Positions 3,291-16,578 of a DNA stretch of 64,000 nucleotides are shown here, piece after piece. The notes below the pieces were generated by a model that was not told the origin of the DNA, searched no databases, and saw only the letters and a program-made list of their open reading frames with translations. The stretch is from Nocardia veterana NBRC 100344 (lineage in GTDB: Bacteria > Actinomycetota > Actinomycetes > Mycobacteriales > Mycobacteriaceae): contig NZ_BAGM01000033.1 of the NCBI RefSeq assembly GCF_000308855.1, forward strand, positions 1 to 64,000. The letters run 5' to 3'. The position numbers and the translations under genes were made by a program. Each line of letters opens with the position of its first letter. Position 1 is the stretch's first letter.

Positions 3291-3300
3291 GCCGGTTGGA

Positions 3301-3774
3301 TCAGAACCGGTACTGCCCCACCGGATTCGGCCGCACCTCGATCGGTGGCCGCGCCTGCTCGGGGACGGCGTTCAGTGGGGCGTACCAGGTGACGCGGTTG
3401 CCGGGCCCGTATTCGCAGCGTCCGGACACCAGGCGGGCGCGCGCCTCCAAAGCGGGAAAGGCATCCGGCCGGCCCCCGTCCCGGCCCGGTTCCGTCCCGA
3501 GGGTTTCGACGGTCACCGTGAGGTAGTCGTCGAGGGAGACGGTGACGACCAGCGTGTCGGCCCCGGCGTATTCGAGCGCTCGGCAGGCGATCTCGCGGAC
3601 GACGACCTCGGCGTGCCCGGCCAGACGGGCATCCACCGCCTGTGCCGGTCCGGTGATCGCCGTGACGATCCGCAGCATGGTATGCCCGACACATCGGTGC
3701 ACGATTTCGTCGATCCGACTGAGCAGACGTGCCCCGGAGAGCACGTGGTCGTCGTCCGTCGGGGCAGCAGCCAT
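3301..3774 (-). CDS. Degenerate histidine-kinase-like ATPase domain protein
   Basis: The 157-residue protein aligns by eye with the C-terminal part of DevS/DosT-type histidine kinases: a helical segment where the dimerisation/His region would lie, then an HEV-VVREI-style helix and a beta-hairpin corresponding to the HATPase_c fold. The phospho-accepting region is RIDEIVHRCVGHT, not a canonical H-box. The N-box Asn and the D-x-G box are not recognisable (VREIACRALEYAGA and TVETLGTEPG instead), so ATP binding and kinase activity are doubtful. The ATG at 3774 sits 10 bases from a GAAAGAGG site; a TTG at 3783 would be too close. It converges with the DUF4185 gene. It may be a diverged sensor remnant or an anti-sigma-like partner. 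Confidence 0.55.
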   Translation of the reverse strand: MAAAPTDDDHVLSGARLLSRIDEIVHRCVGHTMLRIVTAITGPAQAVDARLAGHAEVVVREIACRALEYAGADTLVVTVSLDDYLTVTVETLGTEPGRDGGRPDAFPALEARARLVSGRCEYGPGNRVTWYAPLNAVPEQARPPIEVRPNPVGQYRF

Positions 3775-3866
3775 CGCGGCCAAACCTCTTTCACCCGCCT
3801 ACGACGAACCCGCCCGTGCGCTCGAGCCGGGTACGTCCCCTTCAGTATGTCCCATATCTTTGAAAT

Positions 3867-5402
3867 CTAAACAACTGTATTCCCCGATGTGCGAAGTTCG
3901 CGTTTGAGTAGCTTGCCGCTCTGGTTGCGCGGCAGCGCCGCGACGAAGCGAATGCGCTTGGGCACCTTGAACGGTGCGATCCGCTCCCGGGTGTGGGCGA
4001 TCAGCTCCTCGGCGGTCACCGACTCCCCGTCGCGGACGACCACCACGGCGGTGACCGCTTCGATCCATTTCTCGTCCGGGGTGCCGACGACCGCGACCTC
4101 CGCGACCGCCGGATGGGTGTAGAGCGCGTCCTCGACCTCGCGCGAGGCCACCAGGATGCCGCCGGTATTGATCACATCCTTGATTCGGTCGACGACCGTG
4201 ATGTATCCCTCGGCGTCGCGGGTGACCAGATCACCGGAATGGAACCAGCCGTCGCGAAACGCCTCGGCGGTCGCCTCCGGATTGTCCCAGTAGCCCTGGC
4301 ACAGTTGCGGTGAGCGGTACAGGATCTCCCCGGCCTCACCGGCGGCGACGTCGTTGCCCGCGGCGTCGACGATCCGGGTTTCGACGAAATGGACGGCACG
4401 CCCGCACGAGGCCGGCCGCTCGGCGTGCTCCTCGGGCCGCAGCACGGTGGCGAGCGGGCCGATCTCGGATTGGCCGAAGCAGTTGTAGAAGCCGAGATCG
4501 GGATACCGCTCGCGCAACCGGTTCAACACGGTGACCGGCATGATCGACGCCCCGTACTGCGCCTTGCGCAATGCGGACAGATCCCGCCGGTCCAGGTCGG
4601 GATGATTCGACAGCGGCACCCATACGGTGGGTGCCAGGAACAACGACCCGATCCGCTCGGCCTCGATGCGCCGCAATATCTCCGGAATGTCCGGGGTGGC
4701 CATCAGGTTCACGGTGGCGCCGACCGACAGGTACGGCAGCGCGAACACGTGCATGCCGGCCGAGTGGTACAGCGGCATGGCGACCAGTGGATTGTCCTCG
4801 GCGGTGAGGTCCAGGGCGATCACCGAGGAGACGTACTCGTAGCCGAGCGCCTCGTGAGTCATCATGGCGCCCTTGGGCTTCGACGTCGTGCCGGAGGTGT
4901 AGAGCAACTGGGCGAGGTCGGTGGCGCCGGCCTGGGGCGCCACCTCCGGCACCGGGCCGGAATCGGCCACGGTGAGCAGCGACGGGTCGGCGTCGCGGAG
5001 TGGGACGATCCGCTCGAGCGCCGGCAACTCGGCGCGCACGCTCTCGACGGTGTCGACGAGCGCGGGATCGACCAGCACCGCCCGCGCACCCGATTGGCCG
5101 AGGAGATAGCTCAGCTCTTCGCCGCGCAGCGCGTAGTTCACCGGCACGTGCACCAATCCGGCGCGGGCGCAGGCCAGGAAGCCGATGAGATAGGCGTCGG
5201 AGTTGGTGCCGTAGGCCGCGATCCGGTCACCGGCGACGAGTCCGAGCCCGAGCAGATGTGCTGCGGCCCGGCTGACCGCGGCGTCGAGTTCGCGATAGCT
5301 GCGCGAGCGGCCCTCGAAGGTCACTGCGATGCGGTCGGGGACGCGGGCCGCCGAGCGGCGCAGCACGCCGTCGACGGTGTTGGTGCGAGGATCGAGACTC
5401 AT
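3867..5402 (-). CDS. Acyl-CoA synthetase (AMP-binding, FadD-like)
   Basis: The 511-residue protein is a full-length ANL-superfamily ligase that should activate a carboxylic acid with ATP and CoA. Visible motifs are the P-loop LYTSGTTSKPKGAMMT, the adenylate-binding YGAS and FGQSE, the GDL (GWFHSGDLVTRD) motif, the hinge DRIKD, and the C-terminal lysine in SGKLLKREL. I chose the ATG at 5402 because the protein aligns from residue 1 (MSLDPRTN); the longer open frame upstream is the antisense shadow of the IclR gene. It lies 74 bases downstream of the IclR gene on the same strand and is probably co-transcribed with it. The substrate is unknown; a link with the divergent organosulfur operon is possible. 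Confidence 0.85.
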   Translation of the reverse strand: MSLDPRTNTVDGVLRRSAARVPDRIAVTFEGRSRSYRELDAAVSRAAAHLLGLGLVAGDRIAAYGTNSDAYLIGFLACARAGLVHVPVNYALRGEELSYLLGQSGARAVLVDPALVDTVESVRAELPALERIVPLRDADPSLLTVADSGPVPEVAPQAGATDLAQLLYTSGTTSKPKGAMMTHEALGYEYVSSVIALDLTAEDNPLVAMPLYHSAGMHVFALPYLSVGATVNLMATPDIPEILRRIEAERIGSLFLAPTVWVPLSNHPDLDRRDLSALRKAQYGASIMPVTVLNRLRERYPDLGFYNCFGQSEIGPLATVLRPEEHAERPASCGRAVHFVETRIVDAAGNDVAAGEAGEILYRSPQLCQGYWDNPEATAEAFRDGWFHSGDLVTRDAEGYITVVDRIKDVINTGGILVASREVEDALYTHPAVAEVAVVGTPDEKWIEAVTAVVVVRDGESVTAEELIAHTRERIAPFKVPKRIRFVAALPRNQSGKLLKRELRTSGNTVV

Positions 5403-5476
5403 GGACGTCAGAGTATCGGCCGTCAAACTATTTCGGATCGGTTTGCGCGGTCGTCGAGATCCCGTGGGGTGTGCGG

Positions 5477-6280
5477 TTATCCCGGCCGGCCGTCGGTGGC
5501 GAATCGGGTGGCGATGTCGGCGGCGGTCACCTTGCTCAGTTCGACCAGCAGGGGAAGGCGTTCGGGGAGCATGAGGGTGGTGGGGCCGCGCAGGCCGAGG
5601 GCGAATCGGCAGTCGCCCGCGGGGGAGAGGATGGGCAGCGCGATGGTGCGGAAGCCGGGATCGAGTTCTTCGTCGTTGTAGGCGTAGCCGCGGGCGCGGG
5701 TGCGGTCGAGTTCGGCGCGCAGTTCGGCGGGACTCGACACCGAGCGGTCGGTGCCCTCGTCGTAGGGGAGGGTGGCGAGGAAGTCGTCCGGCACCTCCGA
5801 CCACGCCAGCAGTGCCTTGCCCAGTGCGCTCGCGTGCAGGGGGAGGCGCACACCCATCAGCCGGTGGCCGTCGGTTTCGCGCCACCGGCTGGTGCCGAGC
5901 AGCACCGCGTGGATGCTGTGCCGGATCGCCACCGAGGCGCTGGCCCCGGTGCTGACCGCCAGTTGTTCCAGGCTCGGTTCGGCCAGGTAGATCCGGTGCT
6001 GCCGGTAGGCGATCTGCCCGTATTCGGCCAGTGCGCCGCCCATCCGATAGCGGCTGGAGGCCTCGTCCTTCTCCAGGAAACCGGCATGTACGAGGGCGCT
6101 GAGCAAACGGTGCGTGGTGCTGACGGCAAGGCCTTGCCGCCGCGCGACCTCGGAGACGCCACGTTCCTCGCCGTCGCGGAAACAGTCGAGCACCGACAGG
6201 GCACGGGTGACGGTCTGCACGCCGGAGGCTTCCACGACGGCGACGGTAACACACGCCGTCACCGGAGACGGCTCGTTCAT
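5477..6280 (-). CDS. IclR family transcriptional regulator
   Basis: The 267-residue protein has an N-terminal winged helix-turn-helix (about residues 21-80; SEVARRQGLAVSTTHRLL) and a C-terminal IclR effector domain (A-LGKALLAW and an FALGLRGP-like strand near the end). Such regulators bind small aromatic or organic acids and repress or activate adjacent genes. The ATG at 6280 is chosen; an in-frame extension to 6382 would run through the operator-like repeat at 6325-6360. It is divergent from the organosulfur operon starting at 6514, so it is the likely regulator of that operon and of the downstream acyl-CoA synthetase. Confidence 0.85.
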   Translation of the reverse strand: MNEPSPVTACVTVAVVEASGVQTVTRALSVLDCFRDGEERGVSEVARRQGLAVSTTHRLLSALVHAGFLEKDEASSRYRMGGALAEYGQIAYRQHRIYLAEPSLEQLAVSTGASASVAIRHSIHAVLLGTSRWRETDGHRLMGVRLPLHASALGKALLAWSEVPDDFLATLPYDEGTDRSVSSPAELRAELDRTRARGYAYNDEELDPGFRTIALPILSPAGDCRFALGLRGPTTLMLPERLPLLVELSKVTAADIATRFATDGRPG

Positions 6281-6324
6281 TCCATTATTCGGGAAGTCGG
6301 TCTCGGTCCCGCTTCGGCTTACGC

Positions 6325-6360
6325 TGCGCAAAATTCTGGACCCGACTCGTAATTTGCGCA
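6325..6360. promoter_or_regulatory. Inverted repeat, candidate IclR operator
   Basis: TGCGCAAA (6325-6332) and its exact reverse complement TTTGCGCA (6353-6360) flank a 20-base spacer. The site lies between the divergent IclR gene and the first organosulfur gene, where an autoregulated operator is expected. Binding is inferred. Confidence 0.45.
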
Positions 6361-6411
6361 TGGCACCCGGCGTATCGGACACCTACACCGATTCCGAGTG
6401 GTGCGTCAAGT

Positions 6412-6428
6412 TTTCCGATCTGCGGAAA
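6412..6428. promoter_or_regulatory. Second inverted repeat, candidate IclR operator
   Basis: TTTCCG (6412-6417), a five-base spacer, then CGGAAA (6423-6428) form a 17-base palindrome about 85 bases before the operon start at 6514. Its size fits an IclR-type half-site pair. Binding is inferred. Confidence 0.4.
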
Positions 6429-6513
6429 GCATTACCTCGCAACGGCAGCGCTTCGTCCCTACTGTCGCGGTATCCCGTCGACTTCGGTTCGTATTCGGAA
6501 GAGGTGCTCCACG

Positions 6514-7557
6514 ATGTTTCGCACGCGCAGGCCACACGGTTGGCGACTCGCGATCGCGCTCGCCCCCGTCGTCGCTCTGGTCGCGGCGTGTGGCTCCGGA
6601 TCCGCGACCGAATCGGGCGCCGGATCGCAGCTGGTGTTGAAGGTGGCCGATCCGGGCAACGCGGGCCCACTCGCGGTGGCCAAACGCGACGGCACATTCG
6701 ACAAGGCCCTGGCTCCACTGGGCGCCAAGGTCGAATGGGTCAACACCACACCGGGTTTCAGCTCCATGCTCAAGCTGTTCAACACCAAGCAACTCGACGT
6801 CTCCGGCGCCGCGTTCAGCCCGGTGGTGGGTGCGCTGTCGAAGGACGTCGCGGTCCGCATCGTGGCGGTGCAGGATCCGGCCGGGAAGGACCAGAGCGGC
6901 ATCATCGCCACCAAGGAATCGGGCATCCACTCGGTGGCCGAACTGGTCGGCAAGCGGGTCGCGGTGAATCCGGCGGGCAAGGGCGAGTACATCCTGCTCA
7001 AGGCCCTGGCCCAGGCCGGTATCCCGGCCGACAAGGTGACGCGAGTTCCGTTGCAGCAGAAGGACGCCGCCTCGGCCTTCGCCACCGGCAAGGTCGATGC
7101 CTGGGCCTCGTTCCTGGTGCCCTATCAGGAGGCCAAGGCCAACGGCGGCGTGGAAATCGCGACCGAGCAGAGCATCGGCTCCAAGGACAACACGGTGGTG
7201 GTCTTCCGTACCGAGATCCTCGACAAGCGCCCGGAGATCGCCGCCAAATATCTGGAGGTGTTGCAGGGCTTGACCGTTCAACAGCACGACAATCCGTCCG
7301 CGTTCGAGAACGTCTTCGAGCAGACCGGCCCGCGCGCACTGACCGGCGCCCGGCTCGCCGATGCCATCCGGGTGGACAGCGAGGCCACCGTTCCGCGCCT
7401 GCCGCGGGAATCCGATGCCGCCGACCTTGCCGACGTGGTCGACCTGTTCGCCGGTAACGGCGTGATCAGCCGTACGATCACCGCCGCCGACATCTTCTAC
7501 GACCTGAAGGCCAAGCTCACCCCCGACCAGCTGGCCGCGCTGAAGACGGGCCGCTGA
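6514..7557 (+). CDS. SsuA/NMT1-like ABC transporter substrate-binding lipoprotein
   Basis: The 347-residue protein starts with a twin-Arg-containing basic segment and a lipoprotein signal ending in the lipobox LVAAC (Cys26). The mature part has the two-lobed fold of sulfonate/nitrate/taurine binding proteins: an LVLKVAD start, a VSGAAFSPVVGAL segment, an SVAELVGKRVAVNPAGKG motif, and a DAWASFLVPY segment before the hinge return. It would capture an organosulfur or related anion outside the membrane. It begins an operon and is followed after one base by the permease. A GAAGAGGTG ribosome site precedes the ATG. The substrate cannot be read from the sequence; the desulfurisation enzymes downstream suggest a sulfonate or sulfinate. 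Confidence 0.85.
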   Translation: MFRTRRPHGWRLAIALAPVVALVAACGSGSATESGAGSQLVLKVADPGNAGPLAVAKRDGTFDKALAPLGAKVEWVNTTPGFSSMLKLFNTKQLDVSGAAFSPVVGALSKDVAVRIVAVQDPAGKDQSGIIATKESGIHSVAELVGKRVAVNPAGKGEYILLKALAQAGIPADKVTRVPLQQKDAASAFATGKVDAWASFLVPYQEAKANGGVEIATEQSIGSKDNTVVVFRTEILDKRPEIAAKYLEVLQGLTVQQHDNPSAFENVFEQTGPRALTGARLADAIRVDSEATVPRLPRESDAADLADVVDLFAGNGVISRTITAADIFYDLKAKLTPDQLAALKTGR

Positions 7558-7558
7558 C

Positions 7559-8398
7559 ATGACCGCCGTCATCGCTCCCGTCGTATCCACGGGCCGGCTC
7601 GCACCGCCGCGCAGCCGGATCGAGAAGCGCAGGCCCGCATGGCTGTCGGTGCCGCTGCGCTTCCTGCTTCCGGTGCTGATCTTCGCCGGCTGGTGGATCG
7701 GGTCGGCGACCGGCGCGCTGTCGCCGGAGGTGCTGGCCGGCCCGCCGAAGGTCTGGTCGGCGTTCACCGAACTGGTGAACAACGGACAGCTGGTCGATTT
7801 CGCGCTCGCCTCCTTCGTCCGCGCCGGACTCGGGGTGCTGCTCGGCGTCTCGGCCGGGTTGCTGCTCGGCTTGGCCGCCGGACTGTCCAGCCTCGGTGAG
7901 GAATTGGTCGATTCGACGATGCAGATCGTGCGCGCCGTCCCCTTCCTCGCGCTGGTGCCGCTGTTCATCGCCTGGTTCGGCATCGACGAGTTGTACAAGG
8001 TGCTGCTCATCGCCGTCGCTACCGTCGCGCCCATGTACGCCTACACCTATCTCGGCGTGCGCAATGTGGACCGCAAGGTGGTGGAGGCCGCCCGCGGCTT
8101 CGGGCTGGCCGGGCCGCGGCTGGTGCTGGAGGTGATCCTGCCGTCGGCGCTGCCCGGCATCCTGATGGCGCTGCGAGTCTGCCTGTCCATCAGCATCACC
8201 GGCCTCATCGCGGCCGAACAGGTCGGCACCAGCAAGGGTGTCGGATATCTGGTCACCCTCGCGCAGGAATACAACCGCACCGACTACATGGTGCTGTGCG
8301 TCGTGCTCTACGCGGTCCTGGGCTTGATCTTCGACGGCGCGGTGCGGCTGATCGAGCGCTTCGCGATGCCGTGGCGCGGGCAGGTGGCGATCCGATGA
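7559..8398 (+). CDS. SsuC-like ABC transporter permease
   Basis: The 279-residue integral membrane protein has about six hydrophobic spans. It carries the BPD_transp_1 EAA loop of the sulfonate/nitrate family: VVEAARGFGLAGPRLVLEV followed by ILPSALPGIL. A W-x-G opening (GWWIGSATGALSPEVLAGP) is typical of SsuC/TauC. It should form the homodimeric channel for the binding protein upstream and the ATPase downstream. The stop overlaps the next start as ATGA, so translation is coupled. Confidence 0.88.
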   Translation: MTAVIAPVVSTGRLAPPRSRIEKRRPAWLSVPLRFLLPVLIFAGWWIGSATGALSPEVLAGPPKVWSAFTELVNNGQLVDFALASFVRAGLGVLLGVSAGLLLGLAAGLSSLGEELVDSTMQIVRAVPFLALVPLFIAWFGIDELYKVLLIAVATVAPMYAYTYLGVRNVDRKVVEAARGFGLAGPRLVLEVILPSALPGILMALRVCLSISITGLIAAEQVGTSKGVGYLVTLAQEYNRTDYMVLCVVLYAVLGLIFDGAVRLIERFAMPWRGQVAIR

Positions 8399-9162
8399 CC
8401 GCCGTCGACGAACCACACACCGACACAGCGCTCGCCGTGCGGCTGGTCGGACTCCGAAAAGCCTTCGGCGACAAGGTTGTTCTCGACGGTGTCGAGCTGA
8501 GCATCCGCCGCGGTGAATTCGTGGTGCTGCTCGGCCCCAGCGGCACCGGTAAGACGACGCTGCTGCGACTACTCACCGGACTCGAGGCCCCGGATGCGGG
8601 CGACGTGCTGGTGCCCGCCGTGCGTACCACCGTCTACCAGGAGCCCCGGCTCATCCCGTCCAAACGCGTTCTGGCGAATGTGGTTGTCGGGCAACGTCGT
8701 TCCAAGCCGGTCCGGGAGGCAGGCCTGCGCGCCCTGGCCGAGGTCGGACTCGACGGGAAGGCGCGGCAGTGGCCGGCCACCCTGTCCGGCGGCGAAGCCC
8801 AGCGCGCCGCTCTCGCCCGCGCACTGGTCCGGGAGCCCGAACTGCTGCTGCTGGACGAACCGTTCGCCGCACTCGACGCCCTGACCCGGTTGCAGATGCA
8901 GGACCTCGTCGGCGACCTGGTGGAGCGGCATCGCCCGGCGGTGCTCATGGTGACCCACGACGTGGACGAGGCGGTTCGGCTGGCCGACCGGATCCTCGTG
9001 CTGAACCAGGGCCGCTTCGCCGTCGACATCGATATCGACCTGCCCCGGCCGCGTGACCGGACCGACCCCGCCGCCCTGCGCTATCAGGCGGCTCTGCTCG
9101 CCGAACTCGGCGTCGGGCACACCCAACCATCGAATTCCCCGAACTCACGGAGCATTTCATGA
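8395..9162 (+). CDS. SsuB-like ABC transporter ATP-binding protein
   Basis: The 255-residue ATPase has Walker A GPSGTGKT (residues 47-54), a Q-loop YQEPRLIP (from 81), signature LSGGEAQR (from 130), Walker B LLLLDEP (150-156), D-loop and an H-loop (VTHDVDEA). It powers import with the two preceding gene products. The ATG at 8395 overlaps the permease stop. The C-terminus ends four bases past the start of the DszB-like gene, so all these genes are translationally coupled. Confidence 0.9.
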   Translation: MTAVDEPHTDTALAVRLVGLRKAFGDKVVLDGVELSIRRGEFVVLLGPSGTGKTTLLRLLTGLEAPDAGDVLVPAVRTTVYQEPRLIPSKRVLANVVVGQRRSKPVREAGLRALAEVGLDGKARQWPATLSGGEAQRAALARALVREPELLLLDEPFAALDALTRLQMQDLVGDLVERHRPAVLMVTHDVDEAVRLADRILVLNQGRFAVDIDIDLPRPRDRTDPAALRYQAALLAELGVGHTQPSNSPNSRSIS

Positions 9163-10184
9163 CCGACACCCTCTGGTACACCCGCTGCCCCGTCCCGACG
9201 GCCAGCGGTCTGGCGCACAGTCTGGGCTGGCTCGGGGAAACCGCGCAGCGCAGCGGCCTCATCTTCGGCGTCCTGCAGGACGCCGGGCCCGAACTGGCCG
9301 GATTCCACTTCGATCACGCGCTGCCCGGCCTGGTGCGCGAAGGCGGCAACGTGCCCGCGCTGGCGGCTCGCGCCGCCGGCTCGCCCACTCGGCTCATCGG
9401 CCTCACCTGGATCGACGAATCGCAGGCCATCCTGGTCGGCCCGGATTCACCCGTCACCACCCCGGCCGAGTTGGCCGGTCTGCGCATCGGTGTTCCGGCA
9501 TGGGCACAGGATCAGGCCCGCAGCTTCCCGCGGGCCATGGCGTTGCACGGCTTCGCGAGCGCTCTGCGGCTGGGCGGTCTGACCCTCGCCGATGTCACCG
9601 TGGTCGAACTCGCCGTCGAACGAGATCCGCAGGTGCGCACCGATGTTCAGCAGCGGACCCGCCGTGTCACCTGGGGCGCGGAGGAGCTGCTGCGCGGCGA
9701 GGTCGACGCGATCTACGTCAAGGGCGCACGCGCCCAGGAAGTGGCTACCGAGCACGGCTTGCGGGTGGCGGTGGACCTCGACGCCACCGACAGCAAGCGG
9801 CTGCGCGTCAACAATGGCACCCCGCGGCCCATCACCGTGCATCAGCATCTGCTCGACACCCGACCCGAGGTGGTGATCGACTTCCTCGCGCAGAGTCTGC
9901 GCGCCGCCGACTGGGCCGCCGGCAATCTCGACGGCGTCCGCGCGGTACTGCAACGCGAAACCCTCTCCGGCCCCGACGGAGTCGTGGCCGCCTACGGGGA
10001 GGACTTCCACCGCGGCCTGCACCCCAGCCTGGACGACGAACGGCTCGAACTGCTGGGCGTGCAGAAACAGTTCCTCTACACCCACGGCTTCCTCGCCGCC
10101 GACTTCGACCTCGACTCGTGGGTCGCGCCGGAACCCCTGGCCCGAGCACAAGAGCTGGTCGCGGCCGAACGGGCGGCGGCATGA
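9159..10184 (+). CDS. DszB-like sulfinate desulfinase
   Basis: The 341-residue protein resembles DszB (2-(2-hydroxyphenyl)benzenesulfinate desulfinase) of Rhodococcus. It keeps the three active-site residues: Cys10 in YTRCPVP (DszB Cys27 in YSNCPVP), His50 in GFHFDH (DszB His60) and Arg60 in LVREGGNVP (DszB Arg70 in YTRFGGEIP). The C-terminal block with EDFHRGL, QKQFLYTHGFL and W-APE also matches. DszB has a periplasmic-binding-protein fold but acts in the cytoplasm, and this protein likewise has no signal peptide. It would split a C-S bond to release sulfite from an organic sulfinate. It is embedded in an operon with two flavin monooxygenases, as in dsz clusters, but in a different order and beside a transporter. 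Identity to true DszB looks low, so the substrate probably differs. Confidence 0.75.
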   Translation: MTDTLWYTRCPVPTASGLAHSLGWLGETAQRSGLIFGVLQDAGPELAGFHFDHALPGLVREGGNVPALAARAAGSPTRLIGLTWIDESQAILVGPDSPVTTPAELAGLRIGVPAWAQDQARSFPRAMALHGFASALRLGGLTLADVTVVELAVERDPQVRTDVQQRTRRVTWGAEELLRGEVDAIYVKGARAQEVATEHGLRVAVDLDATDSKRLRVNNGTPRPITVHQHLLDTRPEVVIDFLAQSLRAADWAAGNLDGVRAVLQRETLSGPDGVVAAYGEDFHRGLHPSLDDERLELLGVQKQFLYTHGFLAADFDLDSWVAPEPLARAQELVAAERAAA

Positions 10185-11311
10185 CCGAGTATCTGTGGCG
10201 GCTGCCCAGCCGCGGTGACGGCCGCCGGGCACGCCCGGAGCTGCGGCATCGCGGTGGTTTCGGCGCTCCGGCGCCCACCCCGGCGAGCGGGCGCACCGGT
10301 CATGGTGTGCCCGATCGCGAACCCACCGATGTGCGGCCCGGCCGCTTCGGCCCCTTCGACGACCTGCACCAGGTGATCGACGCCGCCGAACTGGCCGGAC
10401 TCGACGGCGTCCTCGCACCCTACGATCCGCTCGGCGAGGAATCGTGGATCGTCGCCGGCGGCGCCCTGCGCGCCACCCGGCACAGCCGGGTGATCGTCGA
10501 ATTCCAGCCCGCCTTCGGCACTCCCGTCTACGCGGCGAAGGTGTCGGCCACCCTGCAGCGCCTGTCGGCGGGGCGGCTGGGCTGGCGCCTGGCGGTCGAC
10601 ACCGACGACGCGGAGGCGCGCTCGCGCGGCGACCGGGTCTCCGGTGCCGACCGCTACCGTCGCGCCGCGGAATTCCTCACCGTCGCACGCGGTGTGTGGA
10701 ATCGGGATCCGGTGCCGGCGGCCGGATTCCAGGGCACCGGATTCGATTTCGCGGGCGACTACTACGACGTGATCGACGGCGGTTTCCGCGGCGTGCTGTC
10801 GGGCCTGCCCTTCCCGACCGTCTACCTGTCCGGCACCTCGCCCGAGGCCCTGGACCTTTCGGCACGTCACGCGGATGTGCACGTATTCACCGAATCCCCC
10901 GACGGCCCGGGCGAACAGCTGGCCGCGCTGCGCGCCCGCACCGGCGAGACCGGACGCACCGTGCGCGCCGGACTCGAGATCCCGGTCATCGCGCGCGAGT
11001 CCGAGGACGAAGCCTGGGCGCGAGCGGAACGGCAATGGCGTGAGGTGCGCCCGGACGGGCCGGGCGCGCGATCGCTGGCGCTGGGCGACGGCCGCTGGGC
11101 CGGATTCGACCTGCTCGGGTATCCGCAGGCCATCGGTCTGGTCGGCAGTTACGAGCAGGTGGCCCGGCAGCTGCAGGTCTATGCCGCAACGGGTTTCGAC
11201 ACCGTCGTGCTGTCCGGGCACCCGCACATCGAGGAGATACACCGGGCCGGTGAGCATCTGCTGTTCCTGGCCGATCCGGCCGGACGCACCCTGAAGGAGG
11301 TCGCGCTGTGA
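10181..11311 (+). CDS. LLM-class FMN-dependent monooxygenase (SsuD/DszA-like), first copy
   Basis: The 376-residue protein is a luciferase-like TIM-barrel monooxygenase that would use reduced FMN and O2. Evidence: a central block RLGWRLAVD with a following DRYRRAAEFL motif equivalent to the SsuD nucleotide region, a VYLSGTSPEALDLSARHADV flavin/phosphate segment, and a C-terminal GLVGSYEQVARQLQVYAATG motif. The N-terminal 40 residues are Arg/Pro-rich and variable. The start overlaps the previous stop (ATGA) and its stop overlaps the next GTG. It is a paralogue of the next gene but clearly diverged. It probably oxidises a sulfonate, sulfone or the partner's product; the flavin reductase it needs is not in this operon. 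Confidence 0.82.
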   Translation: MTEYLWRLPSRGDGRRARPELRHRGGFGAPAPTPASGRTGHGVPDREPTDVRPGRFGPFDDLHQVIDAAELAGLDGVLAPYDPLGEESWIVAGGALRATRHSRVIVEFQPAFGTPVYAAKVSATLQRLSAGRLGWRLAVDTDDAEARSRGDRVSGADRYRRAAEFLTVARGVWNRDPVPAAGFQGTGFDFAGDYYDVIDGGFRGVLSGLPFPTVYLSGTSPEALDLSARHADVHVFTESPDGPGEQLAALRARTGETGRTVRAGLEIPVIARESEDEAWARAERQWREVRPDGPGARSLALGDGRWAGFDLLGYPQAIGLVGSYEQVARQLQVYAATGFDTVVLSGHPHIEEIHRAGEHLLFLADPAGRTLKEVAL

Positions 11312-12477
11312 CCATCGACGTCTACTGGCGCATCGGTATGGAAGGCGACCACGCCTCGCTGCGCACGCCACGCCGCTACAACCGCGGCAACGCCGGCGGC
11401 TACGGTCCGGGCAATATCGCCCCGGCCGTGCGCGGCGGTGAACTCGACGGCTACAGCTATATCGATCACGTCGCCGCCGTCGCGCGAGCCAGCGAATCCG
11501 CGGGATTCCTGGGCGGGCTCCTGCCCTCGTTCCCGGTCACCGAGGATCCGTGGGCCTTCGCGGCCGCACTGGCCCGCGAGACCACCACCTACCGCTTCAT
11601 GGTCGCCTTCCAGCCGGGCTTCCTGCACCCCGTGCAGGCCGCGCGCATGTCGGCCAGCCTGCAGCGCGCCACCGGCGGGCGGCTCGTCTACAACATCATC
11701 AGCGGTGGCGGCGGTCCGGCCCAATTGTGGTGGGGCGACAAGGTTGCCCACGACGACCGCTACGCCCGCACCAGTGAATTCCTGGATGTGCTGCGCGGAG
11801 TCTGGGACGGGCGGCCGTACACCCACGACGGCCGGTTCTTCCACACCGAGGCCGCCGCCCTGCCGCCGGGCCTGGCCGGGCAACCGTTCCCGGAGGTGTA
11901 CTTCTCCGGGTCCTCCGGCGCCGCGGTGCAGGCCGCCGGACGCCACGCCGACTACTACCTGTCCTGGCTGGAACCCTTCGGCGACCTGCGGGCCAAATTC
12001 GACGGTGTGCGCGCCCACGCCGAAAAGATCGGCCGCACACCGAAGTTCGCGGTGCGCATCGACATCCTGGCCCGGCATACCGAAGAGGCGGCCTGGGACG
12101 AGATCCGCAAGGGTTGGGCCTTCGTCGACCGGGAGGCCGCCAACCGTGCCGCCCAGGGCGATTCGGTGGGAGCGGCGCGGATCAAGGGCTGGGTGCCCGA
12201 AACCATCACCGGCTACCGGGATCTGGAGGTGCAGCCCAACGTCTGGTGCGGTTTCAGCCTGATCCGCGGCGGGCCCGCCTTCGGGCTGGTCGGCAGCTAC
12301 GAACAGGTCGCCCAGCGCCTCGACGAGCTGATCGACCTCGGGGTCGACGCCTTCATCCTCGCCGGCAATCCGCATCTGGAAGAGGCCTACCGGGTCGGCG
12401 AGGAAGTGCTGCCGCTGCTCGGCCGATCCCGCCTGACCGCACCCGATGCCACCCCCGCCCTGACGCACGCCCACTAG
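11308..12477 (+). CDS. LLM-class FMN-dependent monooxygenase (SsuD-like), second copy
   Basis: The 389-residue protein is close in length and pattern to alkanesulfonate monooxygenase SsuD (381 residues in E. coli): RLVYNIISGGG, DRYARTSEFLDVLRGVW, VYFSGSSGAAVQAAGRHADY, and GLVGSYEQVAQRLDELIDLG followed by FILAGNPHLEEA. The predicted reaction is oxygenolytic release of sulfite from an organosulfonate with FMNH2 and O2. The GTG at 11308 overlaps the preceding stop. Seven bases separate its stop from the aldolase gene. Confidence 0.85.
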   Translation: MTIDVYWRIGMEGDHASLRTPRRYNRGNAGGYGPGNIAPAVRGGELDGYSYIDHVAAVARASESAGFLGGLLPSFPVTEDPWAFAAALARETTTYRFMVAFQPGFLHPVQAARMSASLQRATGGRLVYNIISGGGGPAQLWWGDKVAHDDRYARTSEFLDVLRGVWDGRPYTHDGRFFHTEAAALPPGLAGQPFPEVYFSGSSGAAVQAAGRHADYYLSWLEPFGDLRAKFDGVRAHAEKIGRTPKFAVRIDILARHTEEAAWDEIRKGWAFVDREAANRAAQGDSVGAARIKGWVPETITGYRDLEVQPNVWCGFSLIRGGPAFGLVGSYEQVAQRLDELIDLGVDAFILAGNPHLEEAYRVGEEVLPLLGRSRLTAPDATPALTHAH

Positions 12478-12484
12478 GAGAATC

Positions 12485-13192
12485 GTGACCACCACCGAAA
12501 TCCGGCTCGACGACACCGTCACCGAATTCGTCGCCGCCGCCACCCGCGACGCCGAGAAGGCGTTCCGGGTCTTCCGCGAGACCGGCACCGTCGCCGGCAA
12601 CGGGACCGTCAACTTCGTCGAACGCGTCCCCGGCACGGAGATCGCGGTCGCGCTCAACGAGCCCGGGCCCTGGGCCGACGACCGCACCGTGCGACCGGTC
12701 GTCGCGACGTTCGACGGAGAGGTGTTGTCGGGCACCGGTTCCGCGGGATTCGTCACCGGCTACGCCGCGGTCTTCCGCGCACACTCGGACATCACCTCCG
12801 TCGTGCACGTGCACAGCCCGTGGCTGGGCGGCTGGGCGCAGACCCACCGCACCTTCCCGATCCGCTACGCCGCCGTGCAGCGGCTGACCCTGTCGCGAGA
12901 GATCCCGCCGCATATCGACCGCAGTATCGGCGCGGGCGAGTTCATCCTCGGTCAACTGGACCGCGACCCCGACCTCATCGCCATCTTCGAGGCCAACGGC
13001 GGCGCGAACGTCATCGGCCGGGCCGGACTGCTGGACCTGGCGAAGCTGGTCGTCTTGCTCGAGGAGGGCGCCCAATACCAGGCGATCGCCGAAACCCTCG
13101 GCGGCTCCGTCGAATTCGACGCGTCCAATCTGGCGGTGCAGTGGGGGCGCACCGGGCTGGCCGACGAGGCGCGCCGCCGCGGACTGATCTGA
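12485..13192 (+). CDS. Class II aldolase/adducin family protein
   Basis: The 235-residue protein has the class II aldolase fold. Signatures are VVHVHSPW (zinc-binding HxH pair), an upstream N-G-T-V-N-F element corresponding to the GNxS/T phosphate loop, and a helical end with the third metal-ligand region. Family members cleave or epimerise sugar phosphates and related hydroxyacids using a divalent metal. In this operon it may process the carbon skeleton released after desulfurisation (inference). An AGGAG site precedes the GTG. Confidence 0.75.
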   Translation: MTTTEIRLDDTVTEFVAAATRDAEKAFRVFRETGTVAGNGTVNFVERVPGTEIAVALNEPGPWADDRTVRPVVATFDGEVLSGTGSAGFVTGYAAVFRAHSDITSVVHVHSPWLGGWAQTHRTFPIRYAAVQRLTLSREIPPHIDRSIGAGEFILGQLDRDPDLIAIFEANGGANVIGRAGLLDLAKLVVLLEEGAQYQAIAETLGGSVEFDASNLAVQWGRTGLADEARRRGLI

Positions 13193-13227
13193 CCCCCTAC
13201 TTCCGTACTTTCCCGAGGAGCATCCCC

Positions 13228-14175
13228 ATGAGTGTTCGGGTCGGCTACTTCCCGCACAACAATTCGCTGTTCGTCCTGCGCCACCGCGGCATCCTGGAAC
13301 GCGCGCTGCCCGACGTGGAGTGGGTGGATCTGCGCGCCCTGCCGCAGCCGCCCCGCGCCGACGTGAAAACCGCACTGCCGTCGCTGCATTCGGACTACCT
13401 GTTCGGCGCGAACGGCTACGACTTCATCGGCACCGGCTTCACGCCGCCGATCACCGCGCTCGGCAACGACCGCGACATCGTCTACGTCGGCATCTCCGGC
13501 CCGCGCATCGAGAACGGCAGGTTGGTCACCAAGGCCGGCAACGGCATCGAATCGGTGGCCGATCTGAAAGGTAAGCGGGTCGGCATCGCCCACGGCTCCT
13601 GGCAGACCACGCTGCTGCTGTTCGCACTGGACCGGGCCGGACTGGGATGGTCCGATATCGAACCGGTCGACACCGACGTCCACGACGGCGGCGCCCTGCT
13701 GCTCGATGGCACCCTCGACGCGTGGGTCGGCGCCTATCCGGGTCTCGCCGCGGTCGAGGCCGAGGCCGCCCTGCACACGCTGGTCGATACCGAATCCGTC
13801 TTCAGCCACCCGTCGCTGTGGTTCACCCGCCGCGATTTCGCCGAGGGCAACCGCGCGGCCCTGGAGGCGATCGTCACCGCTCTGCAGGAATCCGACGCCT
13901 GGATCGAAGCCAATCCGCGCGCGGCGGCCCGCTACTTCGTCGACGATGTGGTCGCGCGCGGTGGCACCGCCGACCTCGACGCCTGGGAAGCCGCCCTGCG
14001 CGGGCGGCCGTTCGGCATCGGGCCGGTGACCGAGGAGTTCCTCGACGAGCAGCAGCGTGCCGCCGACCTGCTCGCAGCGAACGGGCTACTGCCGGAACGG
14101 ATTCGGGTGCGCGACGCGGTCGATCCCGCGATCGGTGAATTCGTCGCCCGCCGGCAACCGACCCCGGCCAACTGA
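13228..14175 (+). CDS. SsuA-like periplasmic-binding-fold protein without signal peptide
   Basis: The 315-residue protein has the SsuA/NMT1 pattern (VGYFPHNNSLFVLRHRGIL, SVADLKGKRVGIAHGSWQTT, LDAWVGAYPG, NPRAAARYF) but starts directly at the first strand (MSVRVGYFP). It has no hydrophobic leader and no lipobox. The ATG at 13228 has a GAGGAG site five to eight bases upstream, and no upstream codon would add a leader in frame. It contains no cysteine, so it is not a second DszB. It may be a cytosolic enzyme on the same fold, a ligand carrier, or a binding protein that has lost export. Last gene of the organosulfur operon; it converges with a membrane protein gene. Confidence 0.75.
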   Translation: MSVRVGYFPHNNSLFVLRHRGILERALPDVEWVDLRALPQPPRADVKTALPSLHSDYLFGANGYDFIGTGFTPPITALGNDRDIVYVGISGPRIENGRLVTKAGNGIESVADLKGKRVGIAHGSWQTTLLLFALDRAGLGWSDIEPVDTDVHDGGALLLDGTLDAWVGAYPGLAAVEAEAALHTLVDTESVFSHPSLWFTRRDFAEGNRAALEAIVTALQESDAWIEANPRAAARYFVDDVVARGGTADLDAWEAALRGRPFGIGPVTEEFLDEQQRAADLLAANGLLPERIRVRDAVDPAIGEFVARRQPTPAN

Positions 14176-14186
14176 GCGGACGCGAA

Positions 14187-14462
14187 TCAGACCCGCTCCA
14201 CCGTGCTGCGGCGCAGGATCCGGATGGCGCCGACGCACAGGAACGCCAGCACGACGAACACCCCGGACACCACCACATTCCTGGTGGTGGAACTACCGCT
14301 GACAGCGGGCGTGGTGATCGCGAGGAGCACCGAGGCGATGCCGCAGGCCGCCAAGCTGGCCTGGAACGCCTGCGCCCGTCGATCCTGAAGGGCGCGGGCG
14401 ACGAACATCGCGGCGACACTGGTGAACCAGACCGCCATCCCGATCCCGAACAGAATGCTCAT
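14187..14462 (-). CDS. Small three-span membrane protein
   Basis: The 91-residue protein has three hydrophobic helices (about residues 2-24, 33-55 and 62-83) with a basic C-terminal tail (RILRRSTVERV). Family not recognised. The ATG at 14462 is preferred over a longer frame from 14522, whose extra 20 residues are Arg/Ser-rich and lie in the hairpin leader. A weak GAGGCAGGGG site precedes it. Its upstream leader holds a strong hairpin (14481-14520). Confidence 0.65.
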   Translation of the reverse strand: MSILFGIGMAVWFTSVAAMFVARALQDRRAQAFQASLAACGIASVLLAITTPAVSGSSTTRNVVVSGVFVVLAFLCVGAIRILRRSTVERV

Positions 14463-14480
14463 GCTGCCCCTGCCTCTCGG

Positions 14481-14520
14481 GTGCCGCGGATCCGAGCGAG
14501 ACCGCTTGGCTCCGCGGCAC
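14481..14520 (-). promoter_or_regulatory. Long leader hairpin upstream of the small membrane protein
   Basis: GTGCCGCGGA (14481-14490) and TCCGCGGCAC (14511-14520) are perfect 10-base arms. Inside them CCGAGCG and CGCTTGG pair again (one G-U) around an AGAC loop, giving about 17 pairs with a single mismatch. It lies 18 bases before the start codon on the minus strand and lacks a T-run, so a leader structure is as likely as a terminator. Confidence 0.5.
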
Positions 14521-14580
14521 ATTCATGTCTGTGACCGAGAGAGTATGACGCATGATCGGCGCGGTACCGGGCACGGACCG

Positions 14581-14608
14581 CTCGTTCGGGAATCGCTCGT
14601 TCGGGAAT
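14581..14608. repeat. 15-base tandem repeat
   Basis: CTCGTTCGGGAAT occurs at 14581-14593 and again at 14596-14608, a period of 15 bases. It lies upstream of the minus-strand membrane protein gene and could be a pair of operator half-sites on the same DNA face after about 1.5 turns. Confidence 0.4.
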
Positions 14609-14622
14609 TCGGATACCGCGTG

Positions 14623-14820
14623 TCACCCCGCGACGGTGCGCGGCGGTGTGATCACTCGGGTACTGCGGCGGGCGATACCGCTCACCGGCTCGCCCGCCAT
14701 CACCGCGGTCCACCAGTCGTCCAACGCGCTGGGTTCGGGCCACCGCACCACCGGTTCCCGATCGTCGGCCCGGGTGGGCGCCCCGGCCTCGGGCTCCTCG
14801 AAGCCACCTTCGACAGGCAT
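14623..14820 (-). CDS. Small hypothetical protein (65 residues)
   Basis: The predicted peptide is acidic and proline-rich at the start, with a RWPEPSALDDWWTAV segment and a basic C-terminal end (RRSTRVITPP). I prefer the ATG at 14820, nine bases after an AGGGAG site; in-frame starts at 14829, 14838 and GTG 14856 are possible. No family recognised. Support is codon bias and the ribosome site only. Confidence 0.35.
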   Translation of the reverse strand: MPVEGGFEEPEAGAPTRADDREPVVRWPEPSALDDWWTAVMAGEPVSGIARRSTRVITPPRTVAG

Positions 14821-14902
14821 ACCGCTCATCTCCCTCATCGAGGATTCACGCTGCACAGCCAGGAAACCCCGGATTCGGGCCGGTAAACACCCGATCCGAA
14901 AC

Positions 14903-14916
14903 TGGAACGAGTTCTA
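14903..14916. promoter_or_regulatory. KstR-like operator upstream of the aldehyde dehydrogenase
   Basis: TGGAACGAGTTCTA fits the palindromic TnnAACnnGTTnnA motif known for KstR, a TetR repressor of steroid and lipid genes in mycolate actinomycetes. It lies 127 bases before the start at 15043. A second match is at 29065-29078. Assignment is by motif only. Confidence 0.5.
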
Positions 14917-14923
14917 GCCATGG

Positions 14924-14949
14924 GTAGACAGATTTGGTAAGTTGTCTAC
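14924..14949. promoter_or_regulatory. Perfect inverted repeat upstream of the aldehyde dehydrogenase
   Basis: GTAGACA (14924-14930) and TGTCTAC (14943-14949) are exact reverse complements around 12 bases. The region is locally AT-rich and adjoins the KstR-like motif, so it is probably a second regulator site in the promoter. Confidence 0.45.
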
Positions 14950-15042
14950 TGCGTCACAGGGGACGGTCGTCGTGCGGTGAGCTCGGTAGCGGCGGTCCTC
15001 GTGTATCGAGCGAATCGGACCGCGACCACCGAGGGGAAGAGC

Positions 15043-16578
15043 ATGGCCATCGTCCACGCATTGCCGACCACCGACGGCGACCGGCGCAAGCTGGCGTTGG
15101 ACAGTCCGGTGGACCGTCGGCGAATCGGGGAACTCGAGGTCGACACCGCCGACGAGGTGCGCGCGGCCGTGGCCCGGGCCCGGGCCGCGCAGCCGGCCTG
15201 GGCGGCGCGCAGCGTGGCCGAGCGGGCCGCCGTTCTGCGCTCCGCGATCGGCGTGATCGTCGCCCGCCGGACGGAGATCGTCGAGACCATTCGCGCCGAA
15301 ACCGGCAAGCCGGAGGTCGAGGCACTCGGGGTGGAGATCGTGCCGTCGTGCGACTTCCTCAACTACTGGACCGGGCGGGCCCGCCGCGATCTGCGCCCGC
15401 ATCGGCAAAAGCTGCACGGCTATCTGCGCCCGATGAAGAAGCTCTACATGCAGTACCAGCCGCTCGGCGTGGTGGGCGTCGTCACGCCGTGGAACGCGCC
15501 GTTCGTCCTCTCGCTCAATCCGGTGGTGCAGGCGCTGGTCGCCGGAAATACGGTGGTGTTCAAACCTTCCGAGGTGACACCGCGCTCGGGTGAATGGGTG
15601 GCCAGGGTCCTGCACGAGGCCGGGGTGCCCGAGGATGTCGTGCAGGTGCTGCACGGTGACGGCGAAACCGGTGCGGCACTGGTGGATTCGGATATCGACA
15701 AGGTGTGCTTCACCGGAAGTGTCGGCACCGGTCGCAAGATCGCCGCCGCGTGCGCGGCCCGATTGCTGCCCTGCACCCTGGAACTGGGCGGCAAGGACGC
15801 CATGATCGTCTGCGCCGACGCCGACCTCGAGCGGGCGGCCGCGGGTGCGGTGTACCTGTCGATGTTCAACACCGGACAGGTCTGTATGAGTGTCGAACGC
15901 ATCTACGTCGTCGACAGTGTCGCCGACGAGTTCATCCGATTGGTGACCGAGAAGGCGGCCGCGGTCACCTACGGACCCGGTGCCACGGATATGGGTCCGC
16001 TGTTCTGGGATCGCCAGCGCGACATCGTGATCCGGCATATCGACGACGCGAAGGCCAAGGGCGCCGAGATCGTGGTCGGCGGCGCCGCCGATTCCGGTGA
16101 CGGCCTGTATTTCCAGCCCACCGTCGTGGTCGGCGCCCACCACGAGATGGAGCTGATGACCGAGGAGACCTTCGGGCCGGTGACCGCGATCATGCGGGTG
16201 CGCGACGAGGAGGAAGCCATCCGGCTGGCCAACGACTGCAAATACGGGTTGAGCGGTTCGGTGTTCACGAAGGACGCCGTCAAGGCGCGCCGGATCGCCG
16301 CGCGGCTGACCACCGGTTCCGTCGTGCACAACGACGCCGCGGTCATCTACGGCGTGCCCGAGGCGCCGTTCGGCGGTCGCAAGGACAGCGGCGTGGGGCA
16401 GGTCAACGGACCCGATGCGCTCCGCGGTTTCACGCACGCGCAGCCGGTGCTGATCGACCGCTGGCAACCGAAGGGGGAGAGCATCTGGTACCCCTACTCG
16501 GAGAAGACGATTCGCAGCCTGGACGGTCTGATCCGGTACGGATTCGGCAACCGGATCCTGCGCCGCCTACTGTCCTGA
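15043..16578 (+). CDS. NAD(P)-dependent aldehyde dehydrogenase
   Basis: The 511-residue protein is a full-length ALDH, oxidising an aldehyde to the acid. It shows the N169-type TPWNAPF motif, FTGSVGTGR for cofactor binding, catalytic Glu in LELGGKDAM, catalytic Cys in FNTGQVCMS, and the C-terminal EAPFGGRKDSG motif. It has a longer C-terminal extension (KGESIWYPYSEKTIRSLDGL) than succinate-semialdehyde types. The ATG at 15043 is chosen for its GAGGGGAAG site; an open frame runs up to 14977 without such a site. Single gene with a KstR-like operator upstream, so a role in steroid or lipid aldehyde oxidation is possible (inference). Two hairpins follow it. Confidence 0.87.
   Translation: MAIVHALPTTDGDRRKLALDSPVDRRRIGELEVDTADEVRAAVARARAAQPAWAARSVAERAAVLRSAIGVIVARRTEIVETIRAETGKPEVEALGVEIVPSCDFLNYWTGRARRDLRPHRQKLHGYLRPMKKLYMQYQPLGVVGVVTPWNAPFVLSLNPVVQALVAGNTVVFKPSEVTPRSGEWVARVLHEAGVPEDVVQVLHGDGETGAALVDSDIDKVCFTGSVGTGRKIAAACAARLLPCTLELGGKDAMIVCADADLERAAAGAVYLSMFNTGQVCMSVERIYVVDSVADEFIRLVTEKAAAVTYGPGATDMGPLFWDRQRDIVIRHIDDAKAKGAEIVVGGAADSGDGLYFQPTVVVGAHHEMELMTEETFGPVTAIMRVRDEEEAIRLANDCKYGLSGSVFTKDAVKARRIAARLTTGSVVHNDAAVIYGVPEAPFGGRKDSGVGQVNGPDALRGFTHAQPVLIDRWQPKGESIWYPYSEKTIRSLDGLIRYGFGNRILRRLLS

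What the first reader, a model, noticed from the sequence alone, without database searches (positions are those of the whole stretch)
6514..14175. Eight-gene organosulfur uptake and desulfurisation operon of a new composition
All eight genes are spaced by less than 40 bases or overlap. They combine an SsuABC-like importer, a DszB-like desulfinase, two SsuD/DszA-like monooxygenases, a class II aldolase and a leaderless SsuA-like protein, facing an IclR regulator. Known dsz clusters (dszABC) carry no importer or aldolase, and ssu clusters carry no desulfinase. The combination suggests a pathway for an unusual sulfonate, sulfone or sulfinate, with the carbon skeleton also processed.
Basis: partly seen in the sequence, partly recalled or inferred. 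Interest (0 to 1): 0.75.

Follow-up and report, generated by a model that had tools for sequence, protein, structure and literature searches.

The report
Starvation operon that scavenges organic sulfur
Eight adjacent genes, found in the same order in dozens of other actinobacterial genomes and encoding proteins with strikingly few sulfur-containing amino acids, likely let this bacterium import organic sulfur compounds and cut out their sulfur when sulfate is scarce; a matching set of eight genes was already listed in a 2013 Gordonia study, so the arrangement is not new, though its natural substrate is still unknown.

Summary
In detail: eight same-strand genes (6514-14175) lie at most 35 bases apart, facing an IclR gene. 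The composition is not new: Gordonia terrae C-6 locus tags GTC6_01620 to 01585 name the same eight gene kinds in the same order, all induced on benzothiophene, and bdsABC (genes 4-6) turned benzothiophene into o-hydroxystyrene in E. coli extracts. Of the 80 best related loci, 64 keep all eight genes in order and 13 lack only the aldolase-like gene. The DszB-like protein keeps the catalytic Cys/His/Arg in 81 of 81 sequences, and that Cys is its only one. The operon's proteins hold 0.67% Cys+Met against 2.6% in other window genes. A TTCC-N7-GGAA palindrome precedes the operon in 60 of 60 loci with an adjacent IclR gene, against 22 of 2292 control segments. The 'class II aldolase' lacks its third metal histidine and catalytic glutamate, so carbon-skeleton processing is unsupported. 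Gene 8 has no leader (0 of 78 orthologues; gene 1 control 78 of 79). Best reading: a sulfate-starvation operon of the bds type, likely IclR-controlled, importing organosulfur anions and releasing sulfite. Natural substrate unknown.

The parts
5477..6382 (-). IclR-family regulator gene, divergent from the operon; predicted regulator of it (true start probably near 6250)
   Evidence: IclR_C E 3e-24 and HTH_IclR E 7.1e-16; orthologue in 65 of 80 loci, within 400 bp of gene 1 in 60 of them; homology starts at median residue 44
6405..6428 (+). predicted IclR operator near gene 1 (GTCAAGTTTTCCGATCTGCGGAAA; core palindrome TTCCGATCTGCGGAA at 6413-6427)
   Evidence: TTCCN7GGAA in 60 of 60 IclR-adjacent loci, 22 of 2292 control segments; extended form occurs once in the whole genome at up to 2 mismatches
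6280..6295 (.). second, imperfect operator-like palindrome near the iclR start (TTCCATTATTCGGGAA)
   Evidence: aligned with conserved TTCC/GGAA columns of other loci; 46 of 60 loci have two or more exact copies
6514..7557 (+). gene 1: exported SsuA-like substrate-binding lipoprotein (lipobox VAAC)
   Evidence: NMT1 E 8.3e-16; SsuA_fam E 3.7e-34, below the curated cut-off; hydrophobic leader in 78 of 79 orthologues
7559..8398 (+). gene 2: SsuC-like ABC permease
   Evidence: BPD_transp_1 E 2.8e-29; SsuC model E 3.6e-60, below cut-off
8395..9162 (+). gene 3: SsuB-like ABC ATPase
   Evidence: ABC_tran E 6.8e-27; best NCBIfam model aliphatic sulfonate ATPase E 4.5e-68, below cut-off
9159..10184 (+). 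gene 4: DszB-like desulfinase (position of bdsA); catalytic C10, H50, R60
   Evidence: PDB 2de2 E 2.5e-23 with C27/H60/R70 aligned; invariant in 81 of 81; only Cys of the protein in 81 of 81
10181..11311 (+). gene 5: LLM flavin monooxygenase 1 (position of bdsB); SsuD fold, sulfonate-contact residues lost
11308..12477 (+). gene 6: LLM flavin monooxygenase 2, SsuD/MsuD-like (position of bdsC); keeps the two sulfonate arginines
   Evidence: Bac_luciferase E 4.9e-58; MsuD E 4.2e-64 and SsuD E 3.6e-61; R250, R320, W220 invariant in 78 of 78
12485..13192 (+). gene 7: class II aldolase-fold protein, altered active site, role unknown, accessory
13228..14175 (+). gene 8: leaderless, predicted cytoplasmic SsuA-fold protein, no Cys, no internal Met
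   Evidence: SsuA_fam E 1.2e-42, below cut-off; alignment to mature SsuA begins at residue 4; no leader-like segment from any start in 78 orthologues; present in 55 of 55 genomes that have gene 4

Best explanation
These eight genes match, in kind and order, the Gordonia terrae gene cluster around bdsABC, and they likely form one operon that would be switched on when sulfate is short, predicted to import an organic sulfur compound and to release its sulfur as sulfite. Mechanism, all inferred unless stated: genes 1-3 make a sulfonate-type ABC importer; gene 6 (SsuD-like, two sulfonate arginines kept) would oxidise a sulfonate to aldehyde plus sulfite; gene 5 (same fold, sulfonate site lost) would act on an uncharged sulfur compound such as a sulfone and yield a sulfinate; gene 4 would then remove the sulfinate as sulfite with its Cys/His/Arg triad, as DszB does. 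Reduced FMN would come from a flavin reductase elsewhere in the genome (six Flavin_Reduct genes, none in the operon). The divergent IclR protein would bind TTCC-N7-GGAA palindromes in the shared promoter region. Genes 7 and 8 belong to the operon by order and by lack of sulfur amino acids, but their role is unknown; gene 7 is unlikely to be an aldolase and gene 8 is unlikely to be an exported binding protein. Shown directly: gene content, order, conservation, catalytic residues, palindromes, amino-acid composition.
For: Same order 01620 to 01585 in G. terrae C-6, all eight genes up 92- to 188-fold by RNA-seq on benzothiophene versus sulfate, and bdsABC extract activity that needed NADH, FMN and a flavin reductase. 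R. qingshengii IGTS8 peg4799, 4801, 4802, 4804, 4806 raised on dibenzothiophene. Synteny in 64 of 80 loci, four of them Gordonia (L084-L087). C10/H50/R60 in 81 of 81. Cys+Met 17 of 2529 residues without initiators, 66 expected at the window's 2.6%; none in 63 of 66 gene 7 rows, 77 of 79 gene 8 rows and 53 of 79 gene 5 rows. Palindrome in 60 of 60 IclR-adjacent loci, in 5 of 5 loci with IclR about 4 kb off, in 1 of 14 scanned loci without a detected IclR; control 22 of 2292. Gene 8 in all 55 genomes with gene 4, of 401. Flavin reductases.
Against: No expression or enzyme data for this genome. The C-6 record (KC831580) is not held, so the match to C-6 rests on gene names and order and on four other Gordonia loci. 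The benzothiophene result used crude extract and a single product peak; no enzyme was tested alone, and the paper gives BdsB a DszC-like role, which gene 5's fold (LLM, not acyl-CoA dehydrogenase) does not by itself support. An ABC importer is odd for a hydrophobic substrate such as benzothiophene. Gene 2 is not depleted in Cys+Met (2.52%), and among 29 LLM paralogues of the genome 10 are at or below gene 6 and one equals gene 5, so low sulfur content is not unique to this operon. In 15 of 80 loci no IclR gene was detected, two of these at contig ends (L021, L094), and one such locus (L063) still has the palindrome.
Confidence: 0.74

Rival explanations
1. A broad sulfonate-only operon: gene 6 does the work as an SsuD, gene 5 is its inactive partner subunit (as LuxB is to LuxA, recalled), and the DszB-like protein desulfinates a by-product.
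For: Genes 5 and 6 stand in this order in all 79 loci that hold both, overlapping by 4 or 11 bases in 72 of 79; gene 5 diverges faster (50-60% identity in the Gordonia and Amycolatopsis loci where gene 6 keeps 82-84%) and has lost the SsuD C54, W196, H228 and R297 equivalents.
Against: Gene 5 keeps a full SsuD-like fold and conserved blocks of its own; gene 6 has D at H228 and T at C54 in 78 of 78 rows, so it is not a standard SsuD either.
Confidence: 0.2
2. The operon is dedicated to thiophenes such as benzothiophene (the published bds assignment): BdsB oxidises the sulfur, BdsC opens the ring, BdsA desulfinates.
For: Extract of E. coli with bdsABC formed o-hydroxystyrene from benzothiophene; induction on benzothiophene.
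Against: The operon is in many Nocardia species, not only in oil isolates (titles; isolation sources recalled); it has a sulfonate-type importer; IGTS8 proteins rise in dibenzothiophene culture as part of a general sulfate-starvation response, so induction does not name the substrate.
Confidence: 0.2
3. A carbon-catabolic operon for a sulfur-containing compound, in which the aldolase and the neighbouring CoA ligase and aldehyde dehydrogenase feed the skeleton into central metabolism.
For: Class II aldolase fold; CoA ligase domain protein at 3867-5477 and an aldehyde-dehydrogenase-like frame at 14977-16578 in the window (the latter named from its sequence, not scanned).
Against: Neither neighbour is kept: of 80 loci only L046, L089 and L099 gave any hit, at 27-38% identity; gene 7 lacks the metal and catalytic residues; near absence of Cys and Met fits sulfur acquisition better than carbon use.
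Confidence: 0.06

Closest known systems
bds gene cluster of Gordonia terrae C-6 (bdsABC with GTC6_01585-01620)
   Same: Same eight gene kinds in the same order: SBP, permease, ATPase, desulfinase, FMN monooxygenase, alkanesulfonate monooxygenase, hypothetical protein, SBP
   Different: The paper calls only the three middle genes an operon, leaves the seventh a hypothetical protein, and its main text holds neither 'IclR' nor 'aldolase'
IGTS8_peg4799-4806 of Rhodococcus qingshengii IGTS8
   Same: SsuA, SsuB, SsuA/DszB, SsuD and SsuA proteins at matching positions, raised on dibenzothiophene
   Different: peg4800, 4803 and 4805 are not in the passage of the table that I saw; no function tested; 'IclR' is not in the main text
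dszABC (4S pathway)
   Same: DszB-type desulfinase with C27/H60/R70
   Different: No DszC (acyl-CoA dehydrogenase type) and no DszA-type monooxygenase here; importer and genes 7-8 are extra
ssuEADCB alkanesulfonate operon
   Same: SsuABC-type importer, SsuD-type monooxygenase with both sulfonate arginines (gene 6)
   Different: Desulfinase and second monooxygenase added, no SsuE; gene 6 has T for C54, D for H228 and mostly N for Y331
Sphingobium sp. TomTYG65 plasmid cluster (L101)
   Same: SsuABC importer, three DszB-like proteins, a 57.7% gene 6 homologue, a gene 5-like and a 38.6% gene 7-like protein
   Different: Other order and strand, different regulator, extra DszA-sized LLM gene; no leaderless SBP among the 13 proteins compared

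Membership tests
bds-type operon (G. terrae C-6) | desulfinase, LLM 1, LLM 2 in that order | tested here: met
   same order in all 79 of 80 loci that hold genes 4-6
bds-type operon (G. terrae C-6) | flanking importer, hypothetical protein and SBP as in locus tags 01585-01620 | tested here: met
   order read from Table 1; four Gordonia loci carry the whole set
bds-type operon (G. terrae C-6) | sequence orthology to the C-6 proteins themselves | not tested
   KC831580 is not in the annotated collections and no C-6 contig was among the 80 loci
bds-type operon (G. terrae C-6) | converts benzothiophene to o-hydroxystyrene; induced without sulfate | not testable with these tools
   published for C-6 only
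DszB-type sulfinate desulfinase (gene 4) | catalytic Cys27, His60, Arg70 (roles of His60 and Arg70 recalled) | tested here: met
   alignment; C10/H50/R60 in 81 of 81
DszB-type sulfinate desulfinase (gene 4) | releases sulfite from a sulfinate | not testable with these tools
   needs an enzyme assay
dszABC 4S operon | DszC, acyl-CoA-dehydrogenase-type S-oxygenase in the operon | tested here: not met
   no such Pfam domain in genes 1-8
dszABC 4S operon | DszA (NtaA/DmoA-type LLM) | tested here: not met
   genes 5 and 6 are nearest SsuD/MsuD; TIGR03860 52.3 and 83.3 bits against cut-off 279.7
SsuD alkanesulfonate monooxygenase (gene 6) | C54, W196, R226, H228, R297, Y331 (recalled active-site list) | tested here: inconclusive
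   W, R, R kept in 78 of 78; T and D in 78 of 78 and N in 69 of 78 at the others; 263.4 bits against NCBIfam cut-off 518.2
SsuD alkanesulfonate monooxygenase (gene 5) | the same residues | tested here: not met
   of 79 rows: G 78, F 76, E 47 (R 15), P 78, G 73 (R 1), H 51 at these positions
Class II (FucA/AraD) aldolase or epimerase (gene 7) | three metal histidines and catalytic Glu (FucA H92, H94, H155, E73, recalled) | tested here: not met
   H108, H110 kept; G172 at the third His by alignment to 6vop (E 0.0019, weak); no Asp/Glu at 85-94; 66 of 66
Exported sulfonate-binding protein (gene 8) | signal peptide | tested here: not met
   no leader-like hydrophobic segment from any in-frame start in 78 of 78 orthologues; control gene 1: present in 78 of 79

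The most novel reading that the evidence does not exclude
Gene 8 and gene 7 are two new cytoplasmic working parts of sulfur scavenging: a periplasmic-binding-protein fold that moved inside the cell (as the ancestor of DszB once did) and now hands imported organosulfur anions to the enzymes or acts as a cysteine-free enzyme, and an aldolase fold with a rebuilt two-histidine site acting on the released carbon product. The strict pairing of gene 8 with gene 4 and the near-total absence of Cys and Met in both genes 7 and 8 would then mark them as core members of a sulfate-famine machine under direct IclR control.
Probability: 0.25. Interest if true: 0.62.

Novelty: new member of a known kind. Interest (0 to 1): 0.42.

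Why it matters
It turns a loosely described three-gene benzothiophene operon into a well-bounded eight-gene unit that is kept in Nocardia, Rhodococcus, Prescottella, Gordonia, Williamsia, Tsukamurella and Amycolatopsis genomes, mostly with a predicted regulator and operator. That makes two open questions testable: what the natural organosulfur substrate of these 'desulfurisation' enzymes is, and what a cytoplasmic binding-protein fold does there. It also corrects a likely over-annotation (the 'aldolase').

Tried and rejected

Papers, what I saw: PMC3868597 passages and sections 7 and 8; PMC8557817, PMC7661421, PMC11022551, PMC11852219, PMC9861168 passages; PMC6100217 title and start of abstract in a search listing. 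SsuD, DszB and FucA residue numbers are recalled; their places were then read from the alignments.
Full report
WHAT IS THERE. The window holds eight + strand genes from 6514 to 14175; of seven junctions four are 4-base overlaps and three are gaps of 1, 7 and 35 bases. Domain scans confirm an SsuA-like lipoprotein, an SsuC-like permease, an SsuB-like ATPase, a DszB-like protein, two luciferase-like (LLM) monooxygenases, a class II aldolase-fold protein and a second SsuA-like protein without leader; a divergent IclR gene lies at 5477-6382.

CONSERVATION. A scan of one genome per species found 337 places that encode a gene 4 relative; the best 80 were kept. Of these 80, 64 carry all eight genes in the same order and strand, 13 lack only gene 7, and three (L021, L026, L094) are cut by contig ends. 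In the 13 the space between genes 6 and 8 is -4 to 207 bases, so gene 7 is really absent there; they are four Nocardia, one Pseudonocardia and eight Actinomadura, Sphaerisporangium or Nonomuraea genomes. In 401 genomes of the same family (own genome included), gene 4 is in 55, gene 8 in 56 and gene 7 in 53. All 55 genomes with gene 4 have gene 8; 52 of them have gene 7. The one extra genome (G210) has gene 8 with an internal stop and a partial gene 7 but no gene 4, which looks like a decaying copy.

ALREADY IN PRINT. Table 1 of PMC3868597 (section 7) lists eight consecutive locus tags of Gordonia terrae C-6: 01620 SBP, 01615 permease, 01610 ATPase, 01605 desulfinase (bdsA), 01600 FMN monooxygenase (bdsB), 01595 alkanesulfonate monooxygenase (bdsC), 01590 hypothetical, 01585 SBP. 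That is the window's order. RNA-seq ratios benzothiophene/sulfate are 165, 120, 112, 125, 169, 92, 176 and 188. Extracts of E. coli with bdsABC, NADH, FMN and a flavin reductase formed one new peak, o-hydroxystyrene, from benzothiophene (section 8). In Rhodococcus qingshengii IGTS8, peg4799 (SsuA), 4801 (SsuB), 4802 (SsuA/DszB), 4804 (SsuD) and 4806 (SsuA) are among the sulfur-metabolism proteins raised on dibenzothiophene (passages of PMC8557817); another strain of that species has the whole operon with IclR (L073). So the claim of a new composition fails. Neither main text holds the word IclR, and the first calls only the three middle genes an operon. The C-6 sequence itself was not held.

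GENE 4. phmmer aligns it to DszB (2de2, E 2.5e-23) with C27, H60 and R70 over C10, H50 and R60. All three are invariant in 81 of 81 sequences, 80 loci plus the window, and C10 is the only cysteine in 81 of 81. This is what a working DszB-type desulfinase would show. A sulfur-free substrate is thereby unlikely but not excluded.

GENE 8. Its alignment to mature SsuA starts at residue 4. In 78 orthologues no in-frame start gives a leader-like hydrophobic segment (0 of 78), while the same test finds one in 78 of 79 gene 1 orthologues; 37 of the 78 have an in-frame stop within 32 codons upstream (N-termini). It is therefore predicted to be cytoplasmic. 77 of 79 rows have neither Cys nor internal Met, so a DszB-type cysteine is not available.

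SULFUR-SPARING COMPOSITION. Without initiators the eight proteins have 17 Cys+Met in 2529 residues (0.67%), against a pooled 2.6% in 26 other genes called in the window; 66 would be expected. Genes 5, 7 and 8 have none. In the 80 loci the means are 0.48, 2.85, 0.71, 0.59, 0.12, 1.18, 0.02 and 0.01% for genes 1-8, against 2.35% for 425 flanking genes. The permease (2.52%) is not depleted, and for gene 6 12.7% of flanking genes are as low. Among 29 LLM paralogues of the same genome, out of 54 matches (the 30 best had loci, one is gene 6), the mean is 1.71%, one has none and ten are at or below 1.03%; some of these may themselves be sulfur-scavenging enzymes. IclR (2.67%) is normal. Low sulfur content of sulfate-starvation proteins is a known pattern (passages of PMC8557817, PMC7661421 and PMC11022551).

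REGULATION. IclR was detected in 65 of 80 loci, within 400 bp of gene 1 in 60 and about 4 kb away in five Gordonia/Williamsia loci. TTCC-N7-GGAA occurs in the 330 bases before gene 1 in 60 of 60 IclR-adjacent loci (46 with two or more), in 5 of 5 loci with the distant IclR, in 1 of 14 scanned loci without a detected IclR, and in 22 of 2292 random segments of the same loci. In the window the exact copy is 6413-6427, with an imperfect one at 6280-6295. The extended 24-base form is unique in the genome at up to two mismatches. This supports a dedicated IclR operator; binding was not tested.

WIDER FAMILY. Clusters with related parts but other order exist on a Sphingobium plasmid (three DszB-like proteins, gene 6 homologue at 57.7%, gene 7-like protein at 38.6%, SsuABC) and a Streptomyces plasmid (IclR, DszB-like, SsuA, permease, ATPase, a 42.6% gene 8 homologue, LLM). 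The parts thus occur together beyond this family.

VERDICT. A known kind of operon (bds type), here newly bounded: eight genes, a predicted IclR operator, near sulfur-free proteins, a probable non-aldolase and a cytoplasmic binding-protein fold. Desulfurisation under sulfate famine is likely; the natural substrate is unknown.

Noticed in passing
L101 (Sphingobium sp. TomTYG65 plasmid), 2413-15802: A sulfur cluster with SsuABC importer, three DszB-like proteins, a 57.7% gene 6 homologue, a gene 5-like protein, a DszA-sized LLM and a gene 7-like protein.
   Followed up: partly
L102 (Streptomyces sp. SAT1 plasmid), 7635-14745: IclR, DszB-like, SsuA, permease, ATPase, a gene 8 homologue and LLM in a row: a rearranged relative of the window's operon.
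   Followed up: partly
L104 (Allorhizobium ampelinum pAtS4e), 7980-10195: DszB-like protein next to an acyl-CoA-dehydrogenase-family gene on a plasmid; 98 plasmid records hold DszB-like places, 49 of them Sinorhizobium and 22 Rhizobium.
   Followed up: no
own genome contig C205, about 18681-64788: Four LLM matches and a flavin reductase on one contig; one of the LLMs (L108) has only 0.27% Cys+Met, so a second sulfur-acquisition region is possible.
   Followed up: no
G210 contig C1, about 1961582-1963012: Gene 8 with one internal TAG and a partial gene 7 but no gene 4 at E 1e-60: looks like a decaying copy of the operon.
   Followed up: no
L077, L084-L087: In Williamsia and Gordonia about 4 kb with two ABC ATPase matches sit between iclR and gene 1, yet the palindrome stays next to gene 1.
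   Followed up: partly
window 14278-14292: A second exact TTCCN7GGAA just after the operon, downstream of gene 8; may be chance.
   Followed up: no
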